From assembly GCA_902558095.1 (NCBI GenBank), contig CACECP010000007.1:1-56415 (forward strand): a DNA stretch of 56,415 nucleotides, read 5' to 3'. Source of the stretch: an uncultured SAR86 cluster bacterium (GTDB lineage: Bacteria; Pseudomonadota; Gammaproteobacteria; Magnimaribacterales; D2472). Positions 8,892 through 53,131 of the stretch are shown piece by piece. The notes beneath the pieces were generated by a model. That model was given only the letters and a program-made list of their open reading frames with translations. It was not told the DNA's origin and ran no database searches. Each line of letters begins with the position of its first letter. Positions within the stretch are counted from its first letter, which is position 1. A program made the translations under genes and the position numbers.

Positions 8892-10196
8892 TTATTCAGC
8901 GAAATCTTTACCCTTTGCAGCTTCGACTTCACGCTTATTAGGGTTAACAGATTCTCTGAAGGGCACCTCTACAACCTCAGCTTCTACAGGTTCACCTGAA
9001 TTTACAGAATACTCATCAGGTAATCTTACTAATAACTTTGTCCCTATTTCCGATGAAGACCATGGCACCCATGCAAGTGCAATATTTGTTTCTAGCTCAG
9101 GAGACCACCATGGAGAAGTAACATAACCTATGTCATTTCCCTCTCCATCTGCAACTAACCAAAAGTCAGGTGCATAATCTGTTATTTCTTTCCCTCCAAG
9201 AGTAATTCCAACCATTTTCATTTTAAATGGAGCATTTCCACCATCAATAACATCTCTTTGTCTTTCGAGCTCTTCTTTACCAATATAATCTGACTTTTTA
9301 TTTCTCGGTACCTGATAACTTAAATTAACCTGGAACGGAGAAGTCTCATGATCTAAATCTTGACCCCAAGATAATATACCGGCTGCAATTCTTCTATGAT
9401 GAGCAGGCGCAATAACCATTAGTCCAAATTCTTCACCATCACTAAGAACTTGATTCCAAACTTTTTCAGCATTTTCATGTGCATCACGAACATAAATTTC
9501 ATAACCTTTTTCACCTGTAAATCCTGTCTGGCTAATAACACAATCTGCGCCGTTAATTTGAGTTTCCATTAAGCCATAATATGGAACATCTCTTAATTCT
9601 TCACCTGCCATTTTTGCCATAAGATCTTCGGATAATGGTCCTTGTATTTGTAACGGACAAACATCGATCTCATCAATTTCTACATCATATTTCTTTGTGA
9701 CATTTACGCCTTGTAACCAAAATAAAAGATCACTATCAGAGATAGAAAACCAAAACTCATCTTCAGATAGTCTTAATAATACTGGGTCATTTAATATACC
9801 GCCTTTGTCGTTACATAAAATGGCATATTTACCATGCATGGGTTCAATTTTTGTAGCATCACGAGTAATAACAAAATCCGTAAATGCTTCTGCATCAGGG
9901 CCTTTTACTCTTATTTGTCTTTCAACAGCAACATTCCACATAGTAACCCTATTTACCAGAGCTTCGTACTCAACCATTGCTCCACCATCTTCAGGCTTCA
10001 CATACCCTCTTGGATGATAAATTCTGTTATAAACAGTTGCCCTCCAGCAACCAGCTTCATGTGATAAGTGCCAAAAAGGTGATTTTCTTACACGAGTTGA
10101 TATCAATAACTCAGTAGGTGTTCGACCACTCTGCCTTAAATTTATTGGAACAACTCGATCACTTTGATCAACGCTTGGATGGTTTGGATTAGTCAT
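8892..10196 (-). CDS. GcvT-family aminomethyltransferase, DmdA-like
   Basis: This 434-residue protein belongs to the folate-binding GcvT family, whose members transfer one-carbon units to tetrahydrofolate. Segments WNVAVERQIRVKGPDA, FWFSISDSDLLFWLQG and CPLQIQGP resemble DMSP demethylase DmdA (WDVACERQ, FWLSLADSDLL, SPLAIQGP) more than the glycine-cleavage T protein, judged from memory of those families. It is longer than DmdA (about 370) because of a 50-residue N-terminal extension. No gcvH or gcvP lies nearby, which also argues against a glycine-cleavage role. The ATG follows AGGGGG at good spacing. Whether it demethylates DMSP or another methylated amine or sulfonium is open; DmdA-like paralogues without that activity are common. 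Confidence 0.8.
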   Translation of the reverse strand: MTNPNHPSVDQSDRVVPINLRQSGRTPTELLISTRVRKSPFWHLSHEAGCWRATVYNRIYHPRGYVKPEDGGAMVEYEALVNRVTMWNVAVERQIRVKGPDAEAFTDFVITRDATKIEPMHGKYAILCNDKGGILNDPVLLRLSEDEFWFSISDSDLLFWLQGVNVTKKYDVEIDEIDVCPLQIQGPLSEDLMAKMAGEELRDVPYYGLMETQINGADCVISQTGFTGEKGYEIYVRDAHENAEKVWNQVLSDGEEFGLMVIAPAHHRRIAAGILSWGQDLDHETSPFQVNLSYQVPRNKKSDYIGKEELERQRDVIDGGNAPFKMKMVGITLGGKEITDYAPDFWLVADGEGNDIGYVTSPWWSPELETNIALAWVPWSSSEIGTKLLVRLPDEYSVNSGEPVEAEVVEVPFRESVNPNKREVEAAKGKDFAE

Positions 10197-10331
10197 ATAA
10201 ACCCCCTATTAGTTAATGACAAATTCTTAAATTTATCCAATGATTAAACGACATTTTTTTAACTTTGTAAATCAAAATTTACATAAGGTTTAGCTGAAAA
10301 AAAATATTATCTTTTTGATAGATATTTTTGA

Positions 10332-11357
10332 TCAAATATTTAAAATTTTAGATAGTTCTTCAGCAATTATATTATTAGCTTTTTGAGCAGCTTTGCTAAC
10401 TCTTCCAAATATTAAAAAGCTGTGAGGGAGATGATTAAAACAATAATTAACAACATTATTGCCAGCTTTTTTTAATAAGTCAGCATATTCATTACCCTGA
10501 TCTCTTATAGGATCAAATCCTGCTGTAGCGATTATGGTTGGTGGAAAATTACTTAAATCTTGTTGATATAACGGATTAGCCCAGCGATGATCAATATTAT
10601 GACCATTTGGGAAAACAGTATTTCTAAAAAATTCCATTATTTCAAAGGTCATTGGAAATATATCTGCACAACTTTCTATAGATTTTTGATTTTCAATACT
10701 TGTTGTGACCCATGGATAAATTAAACCTAATGCAGCCGGCTGAACTCCTCCTCTATCACGCAAGTCATGCGCTAGAGTTGCTGAAATCATACCTCCAGCA
10801 CTATCTCCAACTAAAGCTATTAATTCTGGATTAATGTTTAATATGTCTGAATTGATTTGGACATAATCCCACAGAGCAAATGCATCTTCAAACGCAGCAG
10901 GAAATTTATTTTCTGGACATCTTCGATATTCTAAAGAGATAACTTTTGCATTACATTTTTTCGCTAATAATGAACAAAAATAATCATCTGTTTTAGTATC
11001 CATAATTACTAAACCGCCTTGATGAAAAAATAAAATTGCTGGAGCATTTTCTTGATCTACATTTTTTTGATATGTTCTAATTTTCATTTTGCCTGTTGAT
11101 GCGTCTATCTCTTCATTTTTGATTGTTATGCTCGGAATGTTTCTAATGGCTATTTGGTCTAATTTTTTTGTAGCTCTTCTTAACTCCTCGGGTGAAACTA
11201 ATATTTTTTGTTGTTCTTCAGAAATGAGCTTTGTAATAATCTGCATATTTGGATCAAGAGTATTTCCATCAATGATAATTGGGGGTCCTGCTATATATTG
11301 AATTATCTTTTTAGGTAAAACTCTTAATATATCTAAAATTAAGTTTTGAAATTTCAT
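10332..11357 (-). CDS. Alpha/beta hydrolase, hormone-sensitive-lipase type esterase
   Basis: This 341-residue cytoplasmic esterase belongs to bacterial family IV. The nucleophile elbow is GDSAGG near residue 190, followed by DPIRDQG (Asp) and LPHSF (His), completing the triad. The oxyanion-hole motif, normally HGGG, reads HQGG near residue 112, with the YRRCPE.KFPAAFEDA block typical of the family after it. It should hydrolyse short acyl esters; the natural substrate is unknown. It lies between the DmdA-like gene and a small lipoprotein gene, all on the minus strand, separated by gaps of 135 and 31 bases, so cotranscription with the lipoprotein is possible. Confidence 0.87.
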   Translation of the reverse strand: MKFQNLILDILRVLPKKIIQYIAGPPIIIDGNTLDPNMQIITKLISEEQQKILVSPEELRRATKKLDQIAIRNIPSITIKNEEIDASTGKMKIRTYQKNVDQENAPAILFFHQGGLVIMDTKTDDYFCSLLAKKCNAKVISLEYRRCPENKFPAAFEDAFALWDYVQINSDILNINPELIALVGDSAGGMISATLAHDLRDRGGVQPAALGLIYPWVTTSIENQKSIESCADIFPMTFEIMEFFRNTVFPNGHNIDHRWANPLYQQDLSNFPPTIIATAGFDPIRDQGNEYADLLKKAGNNVVNYCFNHLPHSFLIFGRVSKAAQKANNIIAEELSKILNI

Positions 11358-11388
11358 TTAATAAACTAAAAGGAAGGCTTCAAAATAC

Positions 11389-11862
11389 TTAGTCAATCAA
11401 TGATTTAGTCTTAACACAAGTATAGGTATTTACAGTGCCTTGAGGATTTCCTGGATCTCTTATAACTTTAGCTTTTCCAGAAAATTTATCAAATGTAAAC
11501 TTCCATGACATCGAATTCATTGCAGTTATTTCATCATAAGTGTTGTTAAAATCTTCATTAAAATTAAGATCATCGAAAGTAGAAAATGTTATATCTGGTT
11601 CCTTGTTGATTAGTTGAACTGTGCCAATATCTGTCTGAATAGTTAAATGGTAGTCAACATCTGCATAGTTTGTAACAACATCACCATTTACATTTATCTT
11701 CATTGGTATTTTATGCATAACTGGGTCTTTGTCCTTACAAATAAATCTATATATTGAAGCTTTTTCTTGTGCTTTTTCCAGTGATTTTTCTTGTTCTTCT
11801 TCTTGTTTTCCAGAACATCCTACAATTCCAATAACAAGCATTAATGCTATAAATTTTTTCAT
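11389..11862 (-). CDS. Small lipoprotein of unknown function
   Basis: The 157-residue product starts with a lipoprotein signal, MKKFIALMLVIGIVGC, with the lipobox cysteine at residue 16, so it should be lipid-anchored after cleavage. A short Glu/Lys-rich linker (about 19-36) precedes a beta-rich domain with regularly alternating residues and two further cysteines near residues 42 and 150, which could form a disulfide. No family is recognised. The gene precedes the HSL-type esterase on the same strand. Confidence 0.7.
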   Translation of the reverse strand: MKKFIALMLVIGIVGCSGKQEEEQEKSLEKAQEKASIYRFICKDKDPVMHKIPMKINVNGDVVTNYADVDYHLTIQTDIGTVQLINKEPDITFSTFDDLNFNEDFNNTYDEITAMNSMSWKFTFDKFSGKAKVIRDPGNPQGTVNTYTCVKTKSLID

Positions 11863-12031
11863 ACTTCAATAATGCCATATTCGCATTTGTTTATAAACAT
11901 ACAATTTCTTTCAACTGTTCAAAAACTGTTATCGCTTTGATATAGTAATTTTATGGAAAACTAGATTGTATTATGTGTAATTAAGGGTTAGAGGATATCG
12001 TAGAAGTTAATAACTAAAGGTATATAAAAAT

Positions 12032-13918
12032 ATGATGAGATATCTATATTCACTTCTATTACTAGTCTCAATTGTATCTTTTTTATTGCCATTCACATAT
12101 GACCTCGGATTAATTAACTTTTTTAGCGAAGAATTTTTAAATAAATACAAGAATTATCTTCCTAATTTAGTTTTTTTTATTTTTATAATAAGTTTCTCAG
12201 CTTTTCTATATTTATTTAGCAAAGATCGGGTGATCTTAATCAAATTTTCGAATACTATCCAGAATAAGCTTTTGAAATTTGGCTCAAATAAGATTAATGA
12301 CATTAATGAATTAACCTACTTACTTCTTATATCCATTATTTTTTCATTAATCTATATGATATTTTTTGAAAAAACTATTTTTGAGTGGTCTACAATAAGT
12401 GAAATTCCAATTCTTATTAGACTTCAAGATCCTAATTACCTTACAAATGACTTTTTTACTAACTCAATTACTGAGTCTCCAAAAATAATATTTGGTCATC
12501 TTATTAATTACTTAAACTTTTTTGGCATCTCCTGGTTAACAGCTTTATATTTCTTAAAAGTTGCTTCCGTAATTTTAATACCACTATTACTCTTTAAGAC
12601 TTATAAGAATATTTCTAATTTATGGTTCTCAGATGAATTAAAAATTAAATATAGGGGGCTAATAAATCAGTCAATATTTATACTTTCTTTTGGTCTTATA
12701 GGACTTTTCCAGCTTTTCCCACAAATGTTTCCTTTTGGCTGGGGAGCAATGGAACTAACTTACTCAATTGATCCTATGAAAGCTGCATTCACTTTTGGAT
12801 TACTTTTTATGTGTACTTATTCCTCAAGAAATAATTATCCCTTTTTAATACCATTGATTCTTCTTTTTATTACTAGCATTCTTCATCCCGTAATTGGAAT
12901 GTCTATATTTATGATCAGTCTCCTTTTTATTTTCTTTGTGCAAATAAGTACTATAAAAATAAGAGAGTCTGTCATTCTTGCATTATTTGGCATTATTTTT
13001 CCTGGTCTTTTGATGTTGGTTTTGTTTGATAATACTTCCTTTTTATCATCATATGAGTTTCTAGATATCTATATTAAATTAAGGCATCCACACCATTATT
13101 TATCATCAGAAATATTAAATATTTATACTTTAATGTGGATTTTTTTATTGTTTATACCAATATATTTATCTAATTTGATTAGAGATCGAAAGCTTGTGAT
13201 CCTATCAATTTTAGTATTTATATCAATAATTAGTTCAGTATTGATGCAATTTGTTTTTACTGAAATATTCCCCAGTAAATTAATAATGAAAATTGGGCCT
13301 ACAAGGTTTACATCATTTTGCTCAATTATGCTTTCAATTAATCTGATTATTTTGGTACCTAGTTTATTTGAATATATAAATAATAAGAAATATAAAAAAA
13401 GCTTTTTTTATCAAATTACTAAACTATTTTCGGTGTATATTTCCTACTATAGTTTCAAATTACAAGAATTCCTTAGACCTAAATTAATTCAATTGGCATG
13501 TATACCTTTGCTTATCTTTTTTGTTTTTGGGTTAACATTTGATAATAAAATTAATAATTATATTGATAGCTCAGATTTAGAAATAACGAATTGGATTAAG
13601 AATAATACAACCAAAGATGACGTGATTTTTTCACCTGAATTTGATCCTTTTCTTGTAAGAATAATATCTGAAAGATCGATTTATGCAGATTTTTCATTTC
13701 CTTTCTCAGAGAGATATATGAAAGAATTCTCTGATAGGTATAAATTTTATCTAGAATCAAAAAATATAAAGATCAGTGATTACGAGTGTTTTAAAAATTC
13801 AAAAAAACAAATCAATTATATTATTTTAAGCAATAGGCTAAGAGATAAAATTAAACCAATATTTTCTAATGAGTTATGGTCAATATATGATGCTCGGGTT
13901 ATTTACTGTGCTAATTAA
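12032..13918 (+). CDS. Large polytopic membrane protein, GT-C-like, unknown function
   Basis: This 628-residue protein has about 12-14 predicted membrane segments filling residues 5-500 and a soluble C-terminal domain of about 110 residues. That tail contains ITNWIKNNTTKDDVIFSPE, a pattern common after the membrane part of GT-C-fold glycosyltransferases and related uncharacterised proteins, where the tail faces the periplasm. No catalytic motif is certain: an early ...SIDPMKAAFTF loop and a ...ILHPVIGMS segment are the only polar patches inside the membrane region. ATG codons at 12032 and 12035 are both possible. Its 3' end overlaps the convergent kinase gene of the glycan operon by eight bases, which suggests but does not prove a role in the same surface process. 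Confidence 0.7.
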   Translation: MMRYLYSLLLLVSIVSFLLPFTYDLGLINFFSEEFLNKYKNYLPNLVFFIFIISFSAFLYLFSKDRVILIKFSNTIQNKLLKFGSNKINDINELTYLLLISIIFSLIYMIFFEKTIFEWSTISEIPILIRLQDPNYLTNDFFTNSITESPKIIFGHLINYLNFFGISWLTALYFLKVASVILIPLLLFKTYKNISNLWFSDELKIKYRGLINQSIFILSFGLIGLFQLFPQMFPFGWGAMELTYSIDPMKAAFTFGLLFMCTYSSRNNYPFLIPLILLFITSILHPVIGMSIFMISLLFIFFVQISTIKIRESVILALFGIIFPGLLMLVLFDNTSFLSSYEFLDIYIKLRHPHHYLSSEILNIYTLMWIFLLFIPIYLSNLIRDRKLVILSILVFISIISSVLMQFVFTEIFPSKLIMKIGPTRFTSFCSIMLSINLIILVPSLFEYINNKKYKKSFFYQITKLFSVYISYYSFKLQEFLRPKLIQLACIPLLIFFVFGLTFDNKINNYIDSSDLEITNWIKNNTTKDDVIFSPEFDPFLVRIISERSIYADFSFPFSERYMKEFSDRYKFYLESKNIKISDYECFKNSKKQINYIILSNRLRDKIKPIFSNELWSIYDARVIYCAN

Positions 13919-15248
13919 TATTATTGAGAATGCGGCATCCATTTAAAGCTAACATAGCCACTTTGCTTTTATTTTCCGAGTGAAGTGGTAGCATGCTTAA
14001 AAATAAAGAAGCTTCTACTATTTTTATTAATTCGTAATCAAGTCCAAAATTTTCTGATAAAGATTTCAGTCCTTTTGAAAAAGAAATATTTTCATCACCT
14101 TTGAAATTAACCTTTATATTTAAACTTTCTTCAAATCTCATATCTGCAAATCCATTAATTATTTTGTCATAATTCCCATTAATTGAATGAGAAAGCTTTG
14201 CGAAGTCATAATATATGCTTCTAACTGACTCATTAAATGATCCACCTCTTGGGTCTATTAAAACAATTCTATCAAAATTCTCTGAAGCCAAGATATTTGA
14301 TAAGCAAAGATCTCCATGAGAAAAAATAGAGCCATCATCGATAATGCTTTTTTTTCTATTTTTTAATATCTTTAAAAGCTTATCAAAGTTATCTTCCAGG
14401 CTACCAAGATTTTGAAATTTAAATATCTCCTCTAATTCAATAAAGGTTTTACTTTTTTTAAAATCATTTATTCTTTCTAAAGTCTTTGAATAAATAAAAT
14501 TAAATTCATCGCCAGTTCTTTTAAAGCTAATATTTTTAGATATATCAAAATATCTTTTTAATTCATCAAAAAACCTTTGGGTTTCAGCCTCTGATATTTT
14601 TCCATTTAAGAATCTTCTTGAAACGTCAAGGTAGCCAATCTTAGGCATAGCATATTGAGCTCCATCTTTGTTCAAAGCAAAGTTATTTGCTGAAATAAAA
14701 TATTTTTTCATTTGATCAGGTACTGAATTTAGAAATTCATATTCTTTTTTAAGTTTATCAACTTTTTCAGACTTCTTGATATATTCATCTTCAACTTTAA
14801 AAATTTGGTTAAAATATCTGGTGTCAAAATCTTCATCTATAATTGATTGAAAAGATTTAAGATCAGAAATTCTTTCCAATGAATCATTCAGAGCATTTTC
14901 AGTGTTTTTAAACTTTTCTATGTCTGAGAACTTTCCTTTAAAAATATATGAATCCTTATTACCCCAGAGAAAGGGAGAGATGGAATACAAAATTTTTTCA
15001 AGGAAAAGTTTTTGGTTGTCATAACTCTTAAATAATATGTCTGAACACCAAAAAATTCCCTTTTCATTTTTTAAACTTTGAACATCTTCAATATTACAAT
15101 ATTGGAATCTAAAGTTGCTATCTAGGGAATCTCTTAGTCTATCATTTAGAGTTTGACTCTTATAGATTATTTCTGAATGAAAATTGCATTTTAAAGAGCT
15201 TCTAAGCTCACTATTTCTAATAGGGGTATCTATATAAAAAAATTTCAT
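13911..15248 (-). CDS. APH-fold kinase of a surface-glycan operon
   Basis: This 445-residue protein ends in an aminoglycoside-phosphotransferase/choline-kinase-like domain: the catalytic loop HGDLCLSNIL near residue 310 and the metal-binding IDPRG near residue 330. The first 250 residues are rich in Lys and Glu with predicted helices and do not match a family I recognise; they may include the kinase N-lobe. Such kinases phosphorylate a hydroxyl on a small molecule (choline, ethanolamine, sugar). It is the last gene of the four-gene minus-strand operon, starting at the base where the HAD-glycosyltransferase gene ends. Next to a LicC-like nucleotidyltransferase it may provide the phosphorylated substrate, as LicA does for phosphocholine; this is inference. 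Confidence 0.72.
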   Translation of the reverse strand: MKFFYIDTPIRNSELRSSLKCNFHSEIIYKSQTLNDRLRDSLDSNFRFQYCNIEDVQSLKNEKGIFWCSDILFKSYDNQKLFLEKILYSISPFLWGNKDSYIFKGKFSDIEKFKNTENALNDSLERISDLKSFQSIIDEDFDTRYFNQIFKVEDEYIKKSEKVDKLKKEYEFLNSVPDQMKKYFISANNFALNKDGAQYAMPKIGYLDVSRRFLNGKISEAETQRFFDELKRYFDISKNISFKRTGDEFNFIYSKTLERINDFKKSKTFIELEEIFKFQNLGSLEDNFDKLLKILKNRKKSIIDDGSIFSHGDLCLSNILASENFDRIVLIDPRGGSFNESVRSIYYDFAKLSHSINGNYDKIINGFADMRFEESLNIKVNFKGDENISFSKGLKSLSENFGLDYELIKIVEASLFLSMLPLHSENKSKVAMLALNGCRILNNIN

Positions 15249-16300
15249 TACTTATGAGATCCTTTTGAGAAAACCATTGCATAAGACAAATATCTTAAAA
15301 ATATTTTTACCCATTTAAGAAAATTCTTATTCCAGGATGATGAACCATATTGTCGTTTCTTTTCAATTATTGGAATTGCCTTAAAATTATCTTCAAACAT
15401 TCTATATAGTGCAAAATCTATACAAAAATCTGATGGTAAATCACGTATATTTTTAATCATCGATTTTCTTAAAATTTTTGGTTGGCCGTTGAAATCACCT
15501 ATTTTTTTAAAACTAATAATGCTTAATAATAGTCTTAGGATAGACGAACAAATATTGTTGATTAAAGAACGATTGAGCCTAATTGGAATAATGGCATTTG
15601 TGTCTTCATTTAGCATATCCAAATTAGACATAATAAAATTATATGTATTGAATTGACCGTCAGCATGATTGATTATTACGAAATCAGAGGTTGAAGCCAA
15701 GAGACCTTCTTTTACTCCATTTCCGTAACCAATATTATTTTTTATATTAATAATTTTTACTTTTTTATCGTTTTGTGAAATTTTTTTGAAAGTTTTATTG
15801 CTTCCGTCATTAGAACCATTATTAATAAATATATAATTTTTTATATCGATAATTCTTTCAAGTAATTTTGTGTCTCTGTAGGTCTTTAAAATATTTTCTT
15901 CTTCATTGAAAAATGGAATGACTATATCAAAAGATTTTCTAAAGAATGGGCCAGAAAATCTAAAAATAAATTCTTCTAAAGATAGATTTCTATCATCAAC
16001 ATACCATCCGTTTTTACCTGCCCATGGCTTGCCAAAAATAATCTCATCATAATGTACGTTTTTCTCATTTAGCCATTCAATAGCGAGCGGCTTTGTAATT
16101 GAATTTATTTTTTCTATATTTTTATCAAATGAGTTCATATTTCTGGCAGAAAAAATAGTAATATTAATTGATTCTTCCTTTGCAAGATTTATAGCTTTTA
16201 AGATTTCTTTATTAACATCTTTTCTTGAATAGTCATCGCTAGATTCATCTACCGTAATAGTATTATCTAAGTCAATTATAATTTTATCTTTTTGATTCAT
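15248..16300 (-). CDS. HAD phosphatase fused to a family 2 glycosyltransferase
   Basis: This 350-residue two-domain protein has residues 1-110 as a small HAD phosphatase: DLDNT (nucleophile Asp10 and Asp12), FSARN (Ser51), KPW (Lys91) and VDD (102-103). Residues 123-350 form a GT2 domain beginning FDIVIPFFNEEEN, with the donor-binding NNGSNDGS, an HADGQF metal-site loop and FNGQPKILR, as in dolichol-phosphate-mannose-synthase-like enzymes. No C-terminal membrane helices are obvious apart from a hydrophobic patch near residue 250. The fusion suggests a phosphatase step and glycosyl transfer on the same intermediate. It sits between flippase-like and kinase genes with gaps of six bases and a one-base overlap. 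Confidence 0.82.
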   Translation of the reverse strand: MNQKDKIIIDLDNTITVDESSDDYSRKDVNKEILKAINLAKEESINITIFSARNMNSFDKNIEKINSITKPLAIEWLNEKNVHYDEIIFGKPWAGKNGWYVDDRNLSLEEFIFRFSGPFFRKSFDIVIPFFNEEENILKTYRDTKLLERIIDIKNYIFINNGSNDGSNKTFKKISQNDKKVKIINIKNNIGYGNGVKEGLLASTSDFVIINHADGQFNTYNFIMSNLDMLNEDTNAIIPIRLNRSLINNICSSILRLLLSIISFKKIGDFNGQPKILRKSMIKNIRDLPSDFCIDFALYRMFEDNFKAIPIIEKKRQYGSSSWNKNFLKWVKIFLRYLSYAMVFSKGSHK

Positions 16301-16306
16301 CTTGAA

Positions 16307-17263
16307 CTAATTCTTCTTTGAGTTTAGTAATGTTATAAAAAAAAGAATACCTGAAACTGTTATTGCAGTACCAAAAATATATATGTTGTAAGCAAAAGAA
16401 TAATTTATAAGGCTATCGAAACCTATAGATATTCCTATTAAATAAAATGCTAACTGTACGCCGCCGTATCCGGCTGGCCCATTTGGTAAAAGTGAAGATA
16501 ATGCAATACAGATTGCTAGAAAAACCATAATCAAAATATCTAACTCTAAAAAGCGAAATAGTATGTAAAAGACTAGAATTTCCAGGGTCCATATTACTAT
16601 TGTTATTAAAATGCACGAGGATAGTTTTGATGTAAAAATTTCTTTAGTTTTTTTAAGTATTTTTATAAAACGAGAGGTATTTATAATAATAGCTAGTGTT
16701 GTTCTTGTTGTTTGCTTTGATAAAAATATTTTATGTATTACAGCCAAGAATTCTTCAAGCGAAAAGTACATTAATAATATTATAAGTAGCAATATGGATG
16801 TCGTTGTTATGACTGGATTTAAGATTTCTAATTGAATGTCAGAAAAAATTGTTGCTATAAAGAGAATTGAAGCTATGAATATAATGTCCAAAAGTCTTTC
16901 ACAAACAAGAATTACAAAAGAATTAGTATAAGAACTAAAGAATTTCTTAAATACGATTACTCTGTAGCTTTCACCCATTCTAAATGGGACCATTAAATTG
17001 ACACCGTTTGCTTTTATCTGCTCTATACATAGCTCTCTTATACTAATTGTTGGATTAGGACTAAGTAACAGCAATCTCATAACTCTAAATAAATGAGAAA
17101 GAAAATATAAGAAGATAGCTAACAATATCGAAAATACTGATAATTCTGATGTTACTTTTTTAATTTCATCTATATCAGAATGAATAAGACTTGTGACATA
17201 TAGCATTGTTGCAATGCCTAATATGAAAAGGAAAATTTTATTAAAATATTTAGGAATCTTCAT
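16307..17263 (-). CDS. Flippase-like integral membrane protein (LPG-synthase TM family)
   Basis: This 318-residue protein has about eight predicted membrane helices. It shows the family marks of the UPF0104/lysylphosphatidylglycerol-synthase transmembrane domain: an early Arg-containing segment (HLFRVMRLLLL), an N-terminal-half RMGESYRVIVFKKFF loop, and near the C-terminus LPNGPAGYGGVQLAFY. Members are proposed to move or use lipid-linked substrates and are often found in glycan clusters as AglD-like proteins. It overlaps the upstream nucleotidyltransferase gene by four bases (ATGA). Together with the GT2 partner it probably handles a polyprenyl-linked sugar; that role is inferred from context. 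Confidence 0.8.
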   Translation of the reverse strand: MKIPKYFNKIFLFILGIATMLYVTSLIHSDIDEIKKVTSELSVFSILLAIFLYFLSHLFRVMRLLLLSPNPTISIRELCIEQIKANGVNLMVPFRMGESYRVIVFKKFFSSYTNSFVILVCERLLDIIFIASILFIATIFSDIQLEILNPVITTTSILLLIILLMYFSLEEFLAVIHKIFLSKQTTRTTLAIIINTSRFIKILKKTKEIFTSKLSSCILITIVIWTLEILVFYILFRFLELDILIMVFLAICIALSSLLPNGPAGYGGVQLAFYLIGISIGFDSLINYSFAYNIYIFGTAITVSGILFFITLLNSKKN

Positions 17264-18018
17264 ATATTTAAATGATTTTTATATTCATCTGGTGTGCCTA
17301 AGATAATTGTTTTAGTCATATCATCCTCGATGTTAGCCTTTATTTTTATATTATTGTTAATCATGTTTTTATAGATATCACTTATATATATTTCATTATT
17401 CTGATTCTGAATCATTTGCTTATATTGCTCTGAATAAATTTTAGAGCTAGAAAAAACATACAGTCCTGATGTTGCATTATTAGATATTACAATCTTTTCT
17501 TTAATATCTGTAATAAAGTTATCTTTATCTACGGTCACATAACTATAGTTTTTTTTACTCGAGTTAAAGCAATCAATGACTCCATGAGCACCTTCATCAA
17601 TAATATTAATTAGTTCTTCTAAATTCCTAGACTTAAGTATCGTATCTCCATTAAAAAAAATAATTGGTTTTGTTGAATAAAATTCTGAATTGTTCTTTTT
17701 AATATAATCTGTAGCAATATATGCAGTCTCTGCTTGTCCGCGAGTATCATTTATGTATTGCAAATCAAAATCAAGACTTAATTTAGATATAGAACTTTGA
17801 AGAGCATTTTTATATTTCTCATCTCTTTTATTACATAAAAACTTTACTTTTGTAGCTTTATTAAATTTAAAAGAGGAAATAATTTCTTCAATTATTGTTG
17901 ATTCATTAAGTTTATAATCCAGCAGGTATTTAGGTATTTTATAGTCTGCTTCTTTAAAGCGACTTCCCAATCCGGCAAGACAAAAAACAAAATAATAATC
18001 TTTATTTTTTATATTCAT
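17260..18018 (-). CDS. Sugar- or choline-phosphate nucleotidyltransferase (LicC-like)
   Basis: This 252-residue cytoplasmic enzyme has the nucleotidyltransferase fold. The signature AGLGSRF...KIPKYLL near residues 15-32 binds the NTP phosphates, and NGDT near residue 125 supplies the metal-binding Asp. It joins a phosphorylated sugar or alcohol to a nucleotide to make an activated donor. Its length and the IPKYLL form resemble the capsule and LicC-type cytidylyltransferases. It is the first gene of the operon, starting about 50 bases downstream of the tRNA-like remnant. The exact substrate cannot be read from the sequence. Confidence 0.78.
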   Translation of the reverse strand: MNIKNKDYYFVFCLAGLGSRFKEADYKIPKYLLDYKLNESTIIEEIISSFKFNKATKVKFLCNKRDEKYKNALQSSISKLSLDFDLQYINDTRGQAETAYIATDYIKKNNSEFYSTKPIIFFNGDTILKSRNLEELINIIDEGAHGVIDCFNSSKKNYSYVTVDKDNFITDIKEKIVISNNATSGLYVFSSSKIYSEQYKQMIQNQNNEIYISDIYKNMINNNIKIKANIEDDMTKTIILGTPDEYKNHLNI

Positions 18019-18070
18019 AAAAGATTAACATTATAATAGAGTTAATCTTTTAAGGAAGTCTTTAAAATAA

Positions 18071-20926: not shown

Positions 20927-21562
20927 ATGATTAAGTTAGATGGCGTACTCCCTTTTGCTGAAGGCGGTAATAGAATGTGCTTTGTTCATCCTCATAATCC
21001 CAATCGGTGCTTAAAAGTAATTCATCCTGGTATTTTGACTAAAATAAGAAGAAGTAAACCCTGGTATAAGCAACTTAGGTCTACTAAAAGTTTTGATGAT
21101 AATTTGCGTGAACAAAATGCTTATAATCAAAAAGCACTGGGATCCGATAATCCAGAGATATGGAATCATCTCGCAAAATGGTATGGAATGGTAGAAACAA
21201 GTATTGGTATCGCATCAGAAACTGAACTAATAAGAAATAATGGAGAAATTGCTGAAACACTTGAAGAGTATCTATTCAAAAATGGCCTTACTGATGTAAT
21301 TAAAGATGCTATTGAAGAATTTCAGCAATGGTTAAGACAGTATTTAGTTTTAACAAAAAATTTAATACCTCATAATCTTGTTTTAACTTCAAAAGAAGGA
21401 AAGCTTGTAATAAAAATTATTGACGGCTTAGGGTCTCAGGCATTCTTTCCACTTCCAAGTTACTCAAATATTTTTGCTAAAAGATATGTTAATAGAAGAA
21501 TTGAGCTTATGTGGAGCAGAATTAATTGGGATCTTTCTGGTAGAAAAGGAAACTGGAAATAA
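20927..21562 (+). CDS. YrbL-family kinase-like protein
   Basis: This 211-residue protein matches the YrbL family (PhoP regulatory network protein), which has a shortened protein-kinase-like fold. Visible marks are an N-terminal GGNRMCFVHP..PNRCLKVI resembling the kinase glycine loop and Lys, the HLAKWYGMVET motif, a central P-HNLVL where the catalytic loop would be, and IIDGLG as the metal-binding equivalent. The canonical HxD of kinases is degenerate (IPHNL), so activity is uncertain. In enterobacteria yrbL belongs to the PhoP/BasR regulons; nothing here shows the same control. Confidence 0.75.
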   Translation: MIKLDGVLPFAEGGNRMCFVHPHNPNRCLKVIHPGILTKIRRSKPWYKQLRSTKSFDDNLREQNAYNQKALGSDNPEIWNHLAKWYGMVETSIGIASETELIRNNGEIAETLEEYLFKNGLTDVIKDAIEEFQQWLRQYLVLTKNLIPHNLVLTSKEGKLVIKIIDGLGSQAFFPLPSYSNIFAKRYVNRRIELMWSRINWDLSGRKGNWK

Positions 21563-34210: not shown

Positions 34211-35380
34211 TTATAGACTCATTTGTTGCCACTTAATGGGGACACCTTCTAATTTATATCTATTTGATTCTTCTCGCAATTTTTCATATTCGGTTTTTGA
34301 TGAATAGACGGTAACTATTAAAGCATTTTCTTTGTTAGCAGTTATTCTAAGAACTCTCCCCATTCTTTGAATTCTTTGTCTTTTTGAAGATGAGGAGCTT
34401 AGAATCATTGCCCCATCTGCTTCAGGCATATCAAAACCCTCATCTAGGGCAGTACAACTCACCAAAACATTTAATTTACCACCCTTGAAAGCTTCAAGAT
34501 TTTCTTGTCTCTCATCATCGTTAAGATCTGTATTATAAATACCCGACTTAAATCCTTTTTTATTTATAATTCTGTTGAACTCTTTAGCTTGTTTTTTATT
34601 TTCAGTAAAAACAATCCAGCTATCTCTTTTATATTTTTGAATGAGCTCCACACCATAAGGTATTCTATTCTTAGAATTTTTAACTAATCTAGCTCTATTA
34701 AAAATTAGCATTTTCAAAGGATAATCATTCATATCCTGACCACCTATAGTAGCAGCCCTTCTTTGGATGCTCTTAGTAAACTTTTTATATCTTTCTTCTT
34801 CTTCTGGAAGTAAGGCTGCATAACCATAAAGAAGTTTAAAATTTACAATTACCTCATCTTCTCTTGCATCTATGTAATCGTAATCAAAGATGATATCTCC
34901 GAGTATCTTTTTAATAATGATATAAAAATTGTCGTCATAGTCTCTCTCAGGAGTTGCTGACAATCCAAGTGTGGCATCCCAATTATTTGAGAGCATTTCT
35001 CCTCTTTTTTCTGTTCCAATTTTGTGGCATTCATCAACTATTAATAATGTGTTTTGATAATTTACTTCTTCAATAATATTTTTTAATGAGTCGATAGTTG
35101 TTATGCATATCTTTTTAAGTTCATTGGTTTGCTCTCCTCCTCCATTAAGAGAAATTTCTTTTGACTTAAATTCTTGTGAGAGACTTTCATACCACTGATC
35201 TAAAAGAGCTATGGAGGGGACTACAATTAGAATATCCTTTTTAGGATCGTCTTCTAAATATTGTTTTAAACAATGAATAGCAAAGAACGTTTTTCCTCCA
35301 CCGGTTACAACTTTAATGATACCTCTTTTTTTTGCCCACCAAAGCGGGAAAGCCTTCTCTTGCCATTCCCTAAGTTTCAA
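34211..35380 (-). CDS. Compact superfamily 2 DEAD/DEAH-type helicase
   Basis: This 389-residue stand-alone helicase has motif I TGGGKT (26-31), motif II DECH (116-119), motif III SATP (141-144), FTENKKQAKEF opening the second RecA domain, and motif VI QRIQRMGRVLR near 345. It begins with LREWQEKA, the Q-tip-like element of the XPB/Res-subunit branch (COG1061-like). It lacks the accessory nuclease, methylase or wing domains of restriction or repair helicases, and is shorter than XPB or RecG. It overlaps trpC by 11 bases at the end of the trp run, which implies translational coupling. Its role, perhaps in DNA repair or RNA turnover, is unknown. Confidence 0.85.
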   Translation of the reverse strand: MKLREWQEKAFPLWWAKKRGIIKVVTGGGKTFFAIHCLKQYLEDDPKKDILIVVPSIALLDQWYESLSQEFKSKEISLNGGGEQTNELKKICITTIDSLKNIIEEVNYQNTLLIVDECHKIGTEKRGEMLSNNWDATLGLSATPERDYDDNFYIIIKKILGDIIFDYDYIDAREDEVIVNFKLLYGYAALLPEEEERYKKFTKSIQRRAATIGGQDMNDYPLKMLIFNRARLVKNSKNRIPYGVELIQKYKRDSWIVFTENKKQAKEFNRIINKKGFKSGIYNTDLNDDERQENLEAFKGGKLNVLVSCTALDEGFDMPEADGAMILSSSSSKRQRIQRMGRVLRITANKENALIVTVYSSKTEYEKLREESNRYKLEGVPIKWQQMSL

Positions 35381-50338: not shown

Positions 50339-51351
50339 AAATTTATAAAGTTGGTGGCGCCGTAAGAGATTCTTTATTAGGCGTAAAAGCAACGGATACC
50401 GACTGGGTTGTAGTAGGCTCCTCTCCAGAGGAAATGATCTCAAAAGGATTTAAACCAATTGGTAAAAACTTTCCAGTATTTTTACATCCTAAAACAAATG
50501 AAGAATATGCATTAGCAAGGACTGAGAAAAAGTCAGGTACCGGCTACAAAGGTTTCACATTTTATTATGGTGATGATGTAACAATTGAAGATGATTTATC
50601 CAGAAGAGACTTCACTATTAATGCAATGGCGCAGGATGAGTCTGGAAATATTATTGATCCTTTTGGAGGTCAAAATGATCTAAAAAATAAATTATTTAAG
50701 CACGTCACAGAAGCTTTTTATGAAGACCCACTCAGAGCAATAAGATTAGCCAGATTTTATACCTACGATCATCTAAAAGATTTCAATCTCGATGAATCTT
50801 CTCGTAATTGTATTGTTCAAATTGTAAATTCTGGTGAAATTGCAGACCTATCTCCTGACAGAGTTTGGGCAGAGACAATGAGGGCTATAAATAGTTCAAA
50901 TCCTAATAATTATTTTGAAAAAATTATTTCTTTTAATTTAAAAGAACCATATTTCTCTAATCTTGAGATATATCAATGCGATACTCACAAAAATTGTCTT
51001 GTTAGGTGGTCAGAACTTCAGATAAATAATAACTTTAGTTTAGGAAAAAATTTACCTATTCCTAATGAATATAAGAAAGTATCATCCTTGCTAGAAAATA
51101 TATCAAAGATATCTAAAACTAATGATGAAAATATAATTAAGATTGCTAAAAAAATTAACTATACAAGAGATTCTAATCTCATAACTATGCTCTGCACTCT
51201 TCCTAATATCGCAACAAAGAAAAATTTTATAATTAAGCTTGTTAACGAATTGCAAAATACTAACTTCTCAAAACTTTCTCAACACTCTAATGATAAAATT
51301 GAAGAAGAAAAGACTAAAATATACAGAACAATTATTAATAAATGTAAATGA
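50335..51351 (+). CDS. cca: tRNA nucleotidyltransferase (CCA-adding enzyme)
   Basis: Cca adds or repairs the 3' CCA of tRNAs. The 338-residue class-II nucleotidyltransferase starts MKIYKVGGAVRDSLLGV, has TDTDWVVVG with the metal-binding DxD, DLSRRDFTINAMA, and DPLRAIRLARF. It is shorter than E. coli Cca (412) because the C-terminal HD phosphohydrolase domain is missing. Both tRNAs in the window encode their own CCA, so repair is the expected role. It overlaps both neighbours by four bases. Confidence 0.95.
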   Translation: MKIYKVGGAVRDSLLGVKATDTDWVVVGSSPEEMISKGFKPIGKNFPVFLHPKTNEEYALARTEKKSGTGYKGFTFYYGDDVTIEDDLSRRDFTINAMAQDESGNIIDPFGGQNDLKNKLFKHVTEAFYEDPLRAIRLARFYTYDHLKDFNLDESSRNCIVQIVNSGEIADLSPDRVWAETMRAINSSNPNNYFEKIISFNLKEPYFSNLEIYQCDTHKNCLVRWSELQINNNFSLGKNLPIPNEYKKVSSLLENISKISKTNDENIIKIAKKINYTRDSNLITMLCTLPNIATKKNFIIKLVNELQNTNFSKLSQHSNDKIEEEKTKIYRTIINKCK

Positions 51352-52073
51352 ATAAAACTATATTTATAACAGGCGCAGCAAAAAGAATTGGGAAAGATAT
51401 TGCGCTTACTTTTAGCGATTTAGGCTGGAATATAATTATTCACTATAATTCTTCTAAACAGGAAGCTGATGAACTAGCAGCAAAAATTAATTCAAAAAAT
51501 CCAAATACGGCAAAAATTGTGCAAGGAAATTTAGATATTGCTGATGATGTAAAAAGAGTGTTGACTGAAGTTGAAGAGATGTTCCCCTCAATAGATATAC
51601 TTGTGAATAATGCTTCTACTTTTTACCCCACTCCTATTGAAGATGTTTCAGAAAATCATTGGAATAAATTAATTGGTAGTAACTTGAAAGGGCCTTTATT
51701 CCTAATACAAGGTCTTAAAGACAAATTAAAGCTTTCTAAGGGTTCGATTATCAATATTACTGATACCAATTTAACAAAAGGCGTACCCAATTACTCTATA
51801 TACTCAGCTGCAAAAGCAGGCCTAGAGGCGATCACCAAAGGTCTTGCAAGAGAATTAGCTCCTGATATTAAGGTAAATGCTGTTGCTCCAGGAGCTATGT
51901 TAGAACCACCTGATGTAACTTGGACTGATGAACAAAAAAGTAAGGTCATAGAAAATATTCCTCTAAATCGAATGGGTTCTGAAAAAGATATTGCAGAAAC
52001 AGTTAAATTTCTTGCTCACTCTGAGTATATTACCGGCCAAATAATCAAAGTGGATGGAGGAAGATCTTTATGA
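51348..52073 (+). CDS. Pteridine-reductase-like SDR (FolM/PTR1 type)
   Basis: This 241-residue SDR begins IFITGAAKRIG, the variant glycine motif of pteridine reductases (TGAAKR), and its active site reads INITDTN...YSAAK, with Asp where ordinary SDRs have Ser, as in PTR1 and FolM. It ends GQIIKVDGGRSL. FolM reduces dihydromonapterin or dihydrofolate. The nearby folK and folB genes (pterin steps) support a pterin role, though those are on the opposite strand. It overlaps cca and the downstream kinase gene by four bases each. Confidence 0.83.
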   Translation: MNKTIFITGAAKRIGKDIALTFSDLGWNIIIHYNSSKQEADELAAKINSKNPNTAKIVQGNLDIADDVKRVLTEVEEMFPSIDILVNNASTFYPTPIEDVSENHWNKLIGSNLKGPLFLIQGLKDKLKLSKGSIINITDTNLTKGVPNYSIYSAAKAGLEAITKGLARELAPDIKVNAVAPGAMLEPPDVTWTDEQKSKVIENIPLNRMGSEKDIAETVKFLAHSEYITGQIIKVDGGRSL

Positions 52074-53131
52074 CTGATGCGAACAAAGTTCTTGACGATG
52101 CTAAGTACTCTGGAACTAAAGAAGTTGATGAAAATCTTCAAATTGATGCTGCAAAATTACAACCATGGATTGATGCCTATGTTCCAAGCGCAGGTAAAAT
52201 AAATGCAATTGAACAGTTCAAAGGTGGCCAATCGAATCCAACATATAAAATTATTACAGATGAAAAAAATCTTGTCCTCAGAAGAAAACCACCTGGGAAA
52301 CTTCTTCCATCTGCTCATGCTGTAGATAGAGAATACAAAGTCATTACCGCTTTGTATGAAACAGATGTTGCCGTACCAAAAACTTATGGATTATGTGAAG
52401 ATCAAGATGTAGCAGGAACAACTTTTTTTGTTATGGACTTTTTGGACGGAGATCTTTTTTGGGACCCAATGATTCCATCAGTCTCAAAAGAAGATAGGAT
52501 CCAAATCTACAAAAATAAAAATGATACGTTAGTCAAACTGCATAGTGTTGATTATAAAAAAATTGGGTTAGAAGATTACGGAAAACCTGGAAACTATGTT
52601 GCAAGACAGGTTGCTAGATGGTCAAAACAGTACCGAGCATCAGAAACTGACAATATTGAAGCCATGAATAACCTTATTGAATGGCTGCCCCAAAATATTC
52701 CAGATGATGATGAAACTACTATCGTACATGGAGATTATCGTTTAGATAATATGATTCTAAAAGATAATAAAGTGATGGGAGTGCTAGATTGGGAACTTTC
52801 AACCTTAGGCCATCCAATTGCTGATTTTAGTTATCATTGTCTGACATGGAGAACGCAAGAAGCTTACTATGATCATGCAAAATTAAAAGAACTTGGAGTT
52901 CCAAATGAGCAAGAATATAGAGATATGTATTCTGAGAGCACCGGCAAAGACCTCTCAGCTAATTGGGAATTCTATATGGCATTTAATATGTTTAAAATTG
53001 CAGCTATTTGTCAAGGCATTCTTGGAAGAGTAAGGGATGGAACAGCAGCTAGCAAACATGCTGAAGAAAGAGGAATGACTGTTTATCCTCTCTCTGAAGC
53101 AGCATGGGATACTATTAAGAGTAATTTTTAA
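52070..53131 (+). CDS. APH-family kinase, ACAD10-like phosphotransferase
   Basis: This 353-residue protein is a small-molecule-kinase-fold enzyme of the group linked to acyl-CoA dehydrogenases (ACAD10/11-like). Marks: FKGGQSNPTYKI glycine loop near residue 50, VLRRKPPGKLLPSAHAVDREYKV with the Lys and Glu, the catalytic HGDYRLDN near 222, GVLDWELSTLGHP with the metal Asp, and ISYHC-type ADFSYHCLTWR. Homologues may phosphorylate 4-hydroxyacyl-CoA in lipid breakdown; no acyl-CoA gene is adjacent here, so the substrate is open. It follows the FolM-like gene with a four-base overlap and converges with folK. Confidence 0.82.
   Translation: MTDANKVLDDAKYSGTKEVDENLQIDAAKLQPWIDAYVPSAGKINAIEQFKGGQSNPTYKIITDEKNLVLRRKPPGKLLPSAHAVDREYKVITALYETDVAVPKTYGLCEDQDVAGTTFFVMDFLDGDLFWDPMIPSVSKEDRIQIYKNKNDTLVKLHSVDYKKIGLEDYGKPGNYVARQVARWSKQYRASETDNIEAMNNLIEWLPQNIPDDDETTIVHGDYRLDNMILKDNKVMGVLDWELSTLGHPIADFSYHCLTWRTQEAYYDHAKLKELGVPNEQEYRDMYSESTGKDLSANWEFYMAFNMFKIAAICQGILGRVRDGTAASKHAEERGMTVYPLSEAAWDTIKSNF

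What the first reader, a model, noticed from the sequence alone, without database searches (positions are those of the whole stretch)
13911..18018. Four-gene operon combining nucleotide activation, kinase, HAD-GT fusion and flippase
A LicC-like nucleotidyltransferase, an LPG-synthase-type flippase-like protein, a HAD phosphatase-GT2 fusion and an APH-fold kinase are packed with gaps of at most six bases. Together they could phosphorylate a small molecule, activate it with a nucleotide, build a lipid-linked glycan and move it across the membrane. Kinase plus nucleotidyltransferase recalls LicA/LicC phosphocholine decoration, but there is no LicD-type transferase, so the chemistry may be different and undescribed.
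Basis: partly seen in the sequence, partly recalled or inferred. Interest (0 to 1): 0.62.

Follow-up and report, generated by a model that had tools for sequence, protein, structure and literature searches.

The report
Sugar-activation and membrane-export gene cassette
Four packed genes in a small-genome bacterium belong to a widely shared cassette that probably activates a sugar, hangs it on a membrane lipid and flips it outward; a distant relative of its kinase gene is needed to put fructose on an E. coli capsule, so the sugar may be fructose.

Summary
Four minus-strand ORFs at 13911-18018 are packed with gaps of at most 6 bases: nucleotidyltransferase (NTase), LPG_synthase_TM flippase-like protein, HAD-GT2 fusion, APH-fold kinase. 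The set is no chance assembly: a Flavobacteriaceae contig has the same order and the same fusion (48% identity). In 80 genome loci chosen by kinase homology, HAD lies nearby in 66 and NTase in 60, a flippase in 79 and a GT2 in 72 (models built from the same loci).

The HAD-kinase-NTase core also sits in E. coli capsule and O-antigen loci. There the kinase homolog is KfoE: published kfoE-deletion primers map exactly to the ends of that ORF, and it matches the kinase profile (346 bits). kfoE deletion gives unfructosylated K4 capsule. KfoE is printed as a "fructosyltransferase", yet it keeps the kinase motifs. I infer a MupP/AmgK/MurU-like route: sugar phosphate, sugar, anomeric sugar phosphate, NDP-sugar; here the sugar would then go onto polyprenyl phosphate and be flipped. 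Fructose is the lead for the E. coli branch, less certain here. The LicA/LicC analogy is weak. No reaction was tested.

The parts
17260..18018 (-). Nucleotidyltransferase (252 aa), first gene; predicted to join the sugar phosphate to a nucleotide (base not known)
   Evidence: PF00483 41.7 bits; nearest solved structure 4evw, E 2.7e-15 single sequence, 3.9e-93 with the family profile; motifs GLGSRF, PK, GQAET, NGDT present
16307..17263 (-). Flippase-like membrane protein (318 aa, LPG_synthase_TM)
   Evidence: PF03706 74.5 bits; TIGR00374 42.7 bits, just under its 43.2 cut-off; 7 hydrophobic segments by a simple Kyte-Doolittle count
15248..16300 (-). HAD phosphatase (about residues 1-112) fused to a GT2 (about 122-350)
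   Evidence: TIGR01689 106.4 bits, below its cut-off; PF00535 59.6 bits; PDB 1xpj E 1.4e-20 for the HAD half and ArnC 9bhc E 1.6e-9 for the GT2 half; fusion shared with L019 at 48% identity
13911..15248 (-). Kinase (445 aa): probable shrunken nucleotidyltransferase-like domain (about 1-140) plus APH-fold kinase (about 135-445); KfoE superfamily
   Evidence: AlphaFold model and PDB matches; N-terminal part alone; motifs HGDLCLSN and IDPRG; homologs and tree
12032..13918 (+). Convergent multi-pass membrane protein (628 aa) overlapping the kinase 3' end by 8 bases; candidate periplasmic glycosyltransferase partner (inference)
   Evidence: 11 hydrophobic segments by a simple count; DUF6798 27.9 bits, cut-off 26.9; like the kinase, no match in the 59 other relatives searched
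10282..18070 (.). Stretch not shared with the close relative G030, which has other genes at the same site; holds the operon and the 628-aa gene, and also the esterase and lipoprotein genes at 10332-11862
   Evidence: flanks align to L193 (82% and 89%), with 1.9 kb of other genes between them; GC 0.25-0.28 at 12-18 kb against 0.29-0.37 beside it

Best explanation
The operon makes and exports a lipid-linked sugar. (1) The HAD domain removes the phosphate from a sugar phosphate. (2) The kinase puts a phosphate on the anomeric hydroxyl of the free sugar. (3) The NTase turns this into an NDP-sugar. (4) The GT2 domain loads the sugar onto polyprenyl phosphate. (5) The LPG_synthase_TM protein flips it to the periplasmic face. 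(6) A membrane transferase, perhaps the convergent 628-aa protein, adds it to a surface glycan.

Shown: the gene set, fusion, order, predicted folds, kept catalytic residues and wide conservation; and, from print, that deletion of the E. coli homolog of the kinase gene (kfoE) gives unfructosylated capsule. Inferred: every reaction, the order of steps 1 and 2, and the sugar. Fructose is the lead (fructose-6-P to fructose to fructose-2-P to NDP-fructose), firmer for the E. coli branch than for this one.
For: Gene order. L019 (Flavobacteriaceae CP2B) has NTase, flippase, HAD-GT2 fusion, kinase in the same order; the fusion is 48% identical. In 80 genome-contig loci chosen by kinase homology: HAD within 6 kb in 66, NTase in 60, both in 55; flippase in 79 and GT2 in 72 within 3.5 kb (models built from the same loci; a window-only flippase model finds 45 of 80). 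HAD and NTase both go with the kinase in 9 of 9 plasmid and phage loci read (in 2 of the 9 the NTase is part of the kinase ORF) and in 6 of 6 E. coli loci read.

Tree. The window kinase is sister to L019 (100/94), inside a 48-row clade (100/99) that holds all genome contigs rows of the tree.

Fructose link. L016 is the E. coli K4 capsule locus: its 686-aa GT2 matches chondroitin synthase 2z86 at 1455 bits. The two homology arms of published kfoE-deletion primers (PMC7429809, passages) match L016 without mismatch at 12220-12269 and 14615-14664, bounding the kinase ORF between HAD and NTase (intact in L179 at 10270-11838). That protein matches the kinase profile, built without it, with 346 bits and keeps HGDLCFSN and DPRG. 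PMC7429809 and PMC3673904 (passages) say kfoE is responsible for the fructose.

Precedent. MupP (HAD), AmgK (anomeric kinase) and MurU (NTase) use the same three-enzyme logic (PMC5371407, passages).

Fold. PDB matches of the window kinase domain include two kinases that I recall as anomeric, methylthioribose kinase (Z 17.4) and maltokinase (Z 16.6), and also LicA (Z 17.5) and aminoglycoside kinases (Z up to 19.4).

GT2. Its best solved relatives are ArnC (9bhc) and Sll0501 (5eke).
Against: No reaction was tested. KfoE is in print as a fructosyltransferase; I saw only the title of that paper in a reference list. KfoE has no Pfam match at E 0.001, and its own structure was not modelled. The printed deletion also removes the last bases of the HAD gene and the NTase start codon, so loss of fructose could come from more than the kinase.

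The window kinase is only 19-24% identical to the capsule kinases over full length and lies in another clade, so its sugar may differ. Sequence profiles do not link the two kinds of N-terminal domain (1.8% probability); only the predicted fold does, at Z 7-9, where chance arrangements also score 7-8 by the tool's own note, and Foldseek's best E was 0.032.

The APH fold does not fix the substrate. The HAD scores under the TIGR01689 cut-off and the GT2 under every NCBIfam cut-off listed. In this branch the GT2 mostly has HxD (71 of 83 GT2 hits, 11 DxD) where I recall DxD as usual. 25 of 80 genome loci and 29 of 80 viral loci lack HAD or NTase within 6 kb (contig ends not corrected for). The NTase is fused to DHBP synthase in a marine phage and in viral contigs, which suggests other substrates in other branches. 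O78 and O20/O137 O-antigen loci hold the cassette although I recall no fructose in O78. L003, a distant kinase relative, showed no HAD or NTase, but its locus is short.
Confidence: 0.6

Rival explanations
1. One reading: a LicA/LicC-like route. The kinase phosphorylates a small alcohol such as choline, ethanolamine or glycerol, the NTase makes the CDP form, and this decorates a glycan built by the GT2.
For: Weak Choline_kinase match, 22.6 bits; LicA among the kinase fold matches, Z 17.5; LicC among the fold matches of the kinase's own N-terminal domain, Z 8.6.
Against: Score under the Choline_kinase cut-off; LicA is close in Z to aminoglycoside, methylthioribose and maltose kinases. LicC is not among the 36 solved sequences matched by the NTase profile at E 1e-6, whose best is 4evw. 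No LicD-type match in the operon. The HAD, GT2 and flippase have no role in that route as I know it, and the homolog KfoE is tied to fructose.
Confidence: 0.12
2. Heptose-type order: the kinase acts first on a sugar phosphate to give a bisphosphate (for fructose-6-P this would be fructose-2,6-bisphosphate), the HAD then removes the other phosphate, and the NTase follows. The sugar need not be fructose.
For: The NTase profile also matches 6jq8 and 5xhw, which are HddC. Kinase, HAD phosphatase and NTase are also the parts of the GDP-heptose route (recalled).
Against: AmgK acts after the phosphatase MupP (PMC5371407 passages). No isomerase gene in the operon. Gene content cannot tell the two orders apart.
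Confidence: 0.2
3. The KfoE-type protein is itself a glycosyltransferase, as printed for K4, and the operon builds a glycan directly.
For: Deletion of kfoE gives unfructosylated chondroitin (PMC7925653, PMC7429809 passages); the paper title 'KfoE encodes a fructosyltransferase' (seen in a reference list). KfoE has no Pfam match at E 0.001.
Against: The window relative is modelled with the APH kinase fold; HGD...N and DPRG are invariant in 14 aligned members and kept in KfoE, which matches that family's profile with 346 bits. A separate uncharacterised family with an 'ISGQ.RG'-like motif, or WavE, stands beside the cassette in several capsule loci and is a better transferase candidate.
Confidence: 0.1
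4. Four unrelated genes that happen to be neighbours.
For: None of the 59 other relatives searched has a kinase match.
Against: Same set in other phyla and same order plus fusion in L019.
Confidence: 0.02

Closest known systems
E. coli K4 capsule genes: EcbF-type HAD, kfoE, NTase (L179 9899-12566)
   Same: Adjacent HAD, NTase-like/kinase fusion and NTase; homologs of the window proteins
   Different: No window-type GT2-flippase pair is annotated beside it; ABC transporter genes stand in the locus; KfoE lies outside the window's kinase clade
Lachnospiraceae-type five-gene cassette (GT2, LPG_synthase_TM, kinase, HAD, NTase)
   Same: Same five functions, same kinase clade, same HxD GT2 motif
   Different: HAD and GT2 are separate genes and the order differs; no function found in what I searched
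MupP / AmgK / MurU peptidoglycan recycling (Pseudomonas)
   Same: Logic: HAD phosphatase, anomeric kinase, nucleotidyltransferase (PMC5371407 passages)
   Different: Different HAD subfamily (HAD_2 in that paper; TIGR01689-like here); the product there is UDP-MurNAc for peptidoglycan recycling; no lipid carrier or flippase named in that set
ArnC / Sll0501-type GT2 with a flippase
   Same: GT2 half matches ArnC 9bhc (E 1.6e-9) and Sll0501 5eke (E 1.1e-6); a flippase-like gene stands next to it
   Different: HxD instead of DxD (usual motif recalled); far under the ArnC equivalog cut-off (39.1 of 529); flippase family PF03706, not ArnEF or GtrA
LicA / LicC phosphocholine activation
   Same: Kinase plus nucleotidyltransferase, same broad folds
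   Different: Sub-threshold family match, extra HAD, GT2 and flippase, no LicD-type match in the operon

Membership tests
HAD-kinase-NTase cassette of the KfoE kind | Homologous kinase with HGD...N and DPRG motifs | tested here: met
   Invariant in alignment A4 of 14 rows, window first; window HGDLCLSN and IDPRG; KfoE HGDLCFSN and DPRG
HAD-kinase-NTase cassette of the KfoE kind | HAD of TIGR01689 kind and NTase of 4evw kind in the same operon | tested here: met
   homologous and adjacent, although the HAD scores 106 bits against a cut-off of 162
HAD-kinase-NTase cassette of the KfoE kind | Nucleotidyltransferase-like domain before the kinase | tested here: inconclusive
   For: the 50 listed fold matches of residues 1-140 are nucleotidyltransferases as far as titles tell (eIF2B and Rv0371c by recall), Z 7.1-8.9, best 125 aligned at rmsd 2.9. 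Against: no profile link to the KfoE N-terminus, Foldseek best E 0.032
HAD-kinase-NTase cassette of the KfoE kind | Makes an activated fructose | not testable with these tools
   Only the published knockout of kfoE in E. coli K4 bears on it
TIGR01689 EcbF-BcbF capsule phosphatase | Score over the curated cut-off of 162 bits | tested here: not met
   106.4 bits over residues 6-112
TIGR01689 EcbF-BcbF capsule phosphatase | HAD catalytic residues DxDxT, K, DD | tested here: met
   D10, D12, T14, K91, D102, D103 invariant in 11 rows
LPG_synthase_TM (PF03706) | Score over the gathering cut-off | tested here: met
   74.5 bits against 33.4
TIGR00374 flippase-like | Score over the curated cut-off | tested here: not met
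   42.7 bits against 43.2
LicA/LicC system | Kinase over the Choline_kinase cut-off | tested here: not met
   22.6 bits against 29
LicA/LicC system | LicD-type transferase in the operon | tested here: not met
   Four genes and the convergent neighbour scanned with Pfam and NCBIfam, no such match; the rest of the genome was not searched for it
AmgK/MurU/MupP pathway | Anomeric kinase activity on MurNAc or GlcNAc | not testable with these tools
   The fold is compatible with many substrates
ArnC-type polyprenyl-phosphate GT2 | Over the PRK10714 equivalog cut-off | tested here: not met
   39.1 bits against 529

The most novel reading that the evidence does not exclude
KfoE-family proteins are ketose-2-kinases: bacteria make a nucleotide-activated fructose (fructose-2-phosphate, then NDP-fructose) for surface glycans, the printed 'fructosyltransferase' KfoE is the kinase of that route, and the operon in this window carries the same activated ketose onto polyprenyl phosphate and out of the cell.
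Probability: 0.3. Interest if true: 0.8.

Novelty: new variant of a known kind. Interest (0 to 1): 0.55.

Why it matters
How fructose is activated for bacterial surface polysaccharides, such as the fructosylated chondroitin of E. coli K4, had no answer in the papers my searches brought up. This finding points to a concrete enzyme set that can be purified and assayed. It questions the printed role of KfoE. It also ties capsule loci, many gut Lachnospiraceae, the organism of this window and phages to one sugar-activation cassette.

Tried and rejected
LicA/LicC-type phosphocholine activation: rejected as the main reading.

AmgK/MurU inside the window: I guessed that 51348-53131, downstream of lptD, surA, pdxA and ksgA, held MurU and AmgK. 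It holds a pteridine-reductase-like SDR and an ACAD11-type APH protein instead.

Sequence-profile link between the two kinds of kinase N-terminal domain: failed, so that claim rests on the predicted fold. A profile search of the KfoE-type N-terminus against PDB gave only designed repeat proteins. The kinase profile A5 found no PDB sequence at E 0.01. AmgK is not among the 50 fold matches listed for the kinase, which shows nothing either way.

Literature. Searches for EcbF/BcbF/1XPJ/4EVW/9IQW/TIGR01689, for GDP- or CDP-fructose, nucleotide-activated fructose, fructose-2-phosphate and KfoE, for the capsule cassette or fructofuranose and for Pasteurella capsule with fructose listed no paper that I recognised as being on the reaction of this cassette. 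Lists were capped (20 of 71, 40 of 70, 15 of 58 and 15 of 461 papers) and the library lacks most subscription journals, so this does not show that it is unpublished. Fructose in E. coli K11 and K52, H. influenzae type e-prime and the V. cholerae core is recalled, not read; PMC3916310 had no mention of fructose. That L015 is K52 is inference (37 of 5426 genomes; kpsM and kpsT apart, where PMC13171606 section 8 reports rearrangement for K52). That L005 is K11 is a guess from its plasmid site (PMC13171598 passages). E. coli O78 (L013) and O20/O137 (L014) clusters also hold the cassette although I recall no fructose in O78: this counts against a fructose-only reading, unless acid-labile fructose was lost in analysis.

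Rows dropped. The tree kept 15 chosen viral loci of 80, and of L042-L098 (57 loci) every fourth plus seven chosen ones, and left out domains of 230 residues or fewer; 78 rows remained. L003 (distant, short locus) is in the tree but not in the adjacency counts. Plasmid hit H3 and several phage hits were not read. The adjacency counts take an NTase domain inside the kinase ORF as an NTase; that is the only NTase in 2 of 9 plasmid and phage loci and 32 of 80 viral loci, and in none of the genome or E. coli loci.

Full report
What is there. Four minus-strand ORFs occupy 13911-18018 with junctions of -4, +6 and -1 bases. In order of transcription they are a nucleotidyltransferase (NTase), an LPG_synthase_TM flippase-like protein, a HAD-GT2 fusion and an APH-fold kinase. 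The kinase gene ends 8 bases inside the 3' end of a convergent 628-aa multi-pass membrane protein.

An accessory block. Neither the kinase nor the 628-aa protein has a match at E 0.001 in the 59 other relatives searched, 33 of them of the same genus. In the relative G030 the flanking stretches align at 82% and 89%, but the site between them holds other genes in 1.9 kb. By eye these look like a DUF411 protein and a CobW-type GTPase; I did not test that. The block is poorer in GC (0.25-0.28) than its sides (0.29-0.37). The relatives are incomplete genomes (60-97%), so a single absence means little; the pattern over all 59 means more.

The same operon elsewhere. tblastn in plasmid and phage records gave 7 and 9 records with a relative of the kinase. 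In the 9 regions read, HAD and NTase homologs go with it in all 9, the NTase being part of the kinase ORF in two of them. L019, a Flavobacteriaceae contig, has NTase, flippase, HAD-GT2 fusion and kinase in the window's order, with the fusion 48% identical. In the 80 loci, over half titled Lachnospiraceae, HAD is within 6 kb in 66, NTase in 60 and both in 55; flippase in 79 and GT2 in 72 within 3.5 kb (these two models were built from the same loci, and a window-only flippase model finds 45 of 80). Gene-order clustering, where 78 kinases fall in one cluster, puts the flippase at -1 in 71, the GT2 at -2 in 61, and HAD/NTase members at +1 in 56 and at +2 in 29. The GT2 of this branch mostly carries HxD, in 71 of 83 GT2 hits, 11 having DxD and 1 PxD. 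In 80 viral loci HAD is found in 54, NTase in 70 and both in 51, the NTase only inside the kinase ORF in 32. In the window's phylum 25 of 299 genomes, its own included, have a kinase-family match at E 0.001, the weakest being marginal. The HAD family TIGR01689 matches only 2 of 369 genomes of the window's class, its own included.

Two branches. In a 78-row tree the window kinase is sister to L019 (100/94), then L053 (98/93), inside a clade of 48 rows (100/99) with the other genome contigs rows and three viral rows. KfoE and the other capsule kinases lie outside it.

The E. coli link. A blastn search with an E. coli plasmid cassette found relatives in 120 of 5426 E. coli genomes, 4 of them with at least 80% of the query; of the 60 records listed, 55 match in the HAD gene only at that sensitivity. 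Six regions were read; all six hold HAD, kinase and NTase, in kps capsule loci (L015-L017) or beside galF in O-antigen-type loci (L013, L014, L018). In L016 the kinase ORF is split by IS1. L016 is the K4 locus: its 686-aa GT2 matches solved chondroitin synthase 2z86 with 1455 bits. PMC7429809 (passages read) prints the primers used to delete kfoE. Both 50-base arms match L016 without mismatch, at 12220-12269 in the end of the HAD gene and at 14615-14664 in the start of the NTase gene. The deleted stretch is the kinase ORF, intact in L179 at 10270-11838 (522 aa). That protein matches the kinase profile, built without it, with 346 bits over residues 207-519 (profile comparison E 8.7e-76) and keeps HGDLCFSN and DPRG, though Pfam at E 0.001 finds nothing in it. 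KfoE is therefore the capsule relative of the window kinase. PMC3673904 and PMC7429809 (passages) state that kfoE is responsible for adding fructose to the K4 polymer. PMC7925653 (passages) says its deletion gives non-fructosylated chondroitin and cites a paper titled 'KfoE encodes a fructosyltransferase'; of that paper I saw only the title. The deletion also takes the NTase start codon and the end of the HAD gene, so the phenotype may reflect more than one gene.

What the kinase is. The model of the window protein (mean pLDDT 88.5) has an APH-type kinase at about 135-445. Its nearest solved folds are aminoglycoside kinases (Z up to 19.4), LicA (17.5), methylthioribose kinase (17.4) and, at rank 50, maltokinase (16.6). 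These are too close to one another to name the substrate. HGD...N and DPRG are invariant in 14 aligned members and present in the window. Residues 1-140, modelled alone, match nucleotidyltransferases: PntC 8.9, TarI 8.8, LicC 8.6 and MurU 8.2 are near the top of the list. This is support rather than proof: Foldseek alone gave no E under 0.001, and the tool notes that models without a clear match often reach Z 7 to 8. The KfoE-type N-terminus is linked to the cassette NTases by profile (96.6%), but the window type is not linked to the KfoE type. By eye the usual GxGxR loop is missing from the window's N-terminal part, so I read it as a non-catalytic remnant (inference).

Mechanism. HAD phosphatase, APH-fold kinase and NTase in one operon repeat the logic of MupP, AmgK and MurU, where MurNAc-6-P becomes MurNAc, MurNAc-1-P and UDP-MurNAc (PMC5371407 passages). 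For K4, glucuronate and GalNAc can be accounted for by the nucleotide sugar dehydrogenase and GalE genes of the locus. Fructose is the sugar left, and HAD, KfoE and NTase are among the genes left. I infer fructose-6-P to fructose to fructose-2-P to NDP-fructose. A family with an 'ISGQ.RG'-like motif (members in 8 of 16 loci clustered), or WavE (5 of 16), beside capsule cassettes (by eye also) is my candidate for the true fructosyltransferase. In the window branch, the GT2 (nearest ArnC and Sll0501) and the flippase point to transfer onto polyprenyl phosphate and flipping. GtrA, phosphoglucomutase and GT87-type genes near copies in the 80 loci (clusters present in 39, 31 and 20 loci; one member of each named) fit such a route.

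What speaks against fructose here: the sequence distance (19-24% to capsule kinases), the separate clade, a DHBP-synthase fusion in a marine phage and viral contigs, and O78-type O-antigen loci for which I recall no fructose. I hold the general route at 0.6 and fructose in this operon at about 0.3.

Known or new. Each protein family is known. KfoE and EcbF-BcbF have names, and relatives of the NTase and HAD have solved structures, 4evw (from Vibrio cholerae, title) and 1xpj. My searches (open-access library, capped lists) listed no paper that I recognised as describing the cassette's reactions or this four-gene operon. I file it as a new variant of a known kind.

Noticed in passing
L011:4307-5734; L112:6559-7998; L164:6161-7561: In Synechococcus phage S-SKS1 and two viral contigs the cassette NTase is fused to DHBP synthase (PF00926); in L011 and L112 the kinase is the next gene. 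Suggests a four-carbon ketose phosphate as a substrate in that branch.
   Followed up: partly
L010:4946-6921: Enterococcus phage 9183 carries HAD plus NTase-kinase fusion beside thymidylate synthase and dUTPase genes, which hints at DNA base modification rather than capsule.
   Followed up: no
L016:12270-14614: In E. coli WP4-W18-ESBL-09 an IS1 element lies inside the kfoE homolog of the K4 locus; its capsule may be naturally without fructose.
   Followed up: no
L179:8415-9848; L005:5180-6868; L223:4983-6356: Uncharacterised family with an 'ISGQ.RG'-like motif beside capsule cassettes; candidate fructosyltransferase. The first two have no Pfam match over its cut-off; L223 was seen by eye only.
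   Followed up: partly
L013:8986-11728; L014:8776-11566: The cassette lies in the O78 and O20/O137 O-antigen clusters; the known O-antigen structures may lack a labile sugar.
   Followed up: no
window 8892-10196: GcvT/DMSP-demethylase-like protein, 263.8 bits against a cut-off of 410.
   Followed up: no
window 34211-35380: Helicase resembling the Dnd phosphorothioation restriction enzyme, 189 bits against a cut-off of 600, close to trpD and anthranilate synthase genes.
   Followed up: no
window 52070-53131: APH-fold protein close to 3dxp and to ACAD11 (8v3v), downstream of lptD, surA, pdxA and ksgA-like genes.
   Followed up: partly
window 20927-21562: YrbL-like protein (PF10707) close to the operon, on the other strand.
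   Followed up: no
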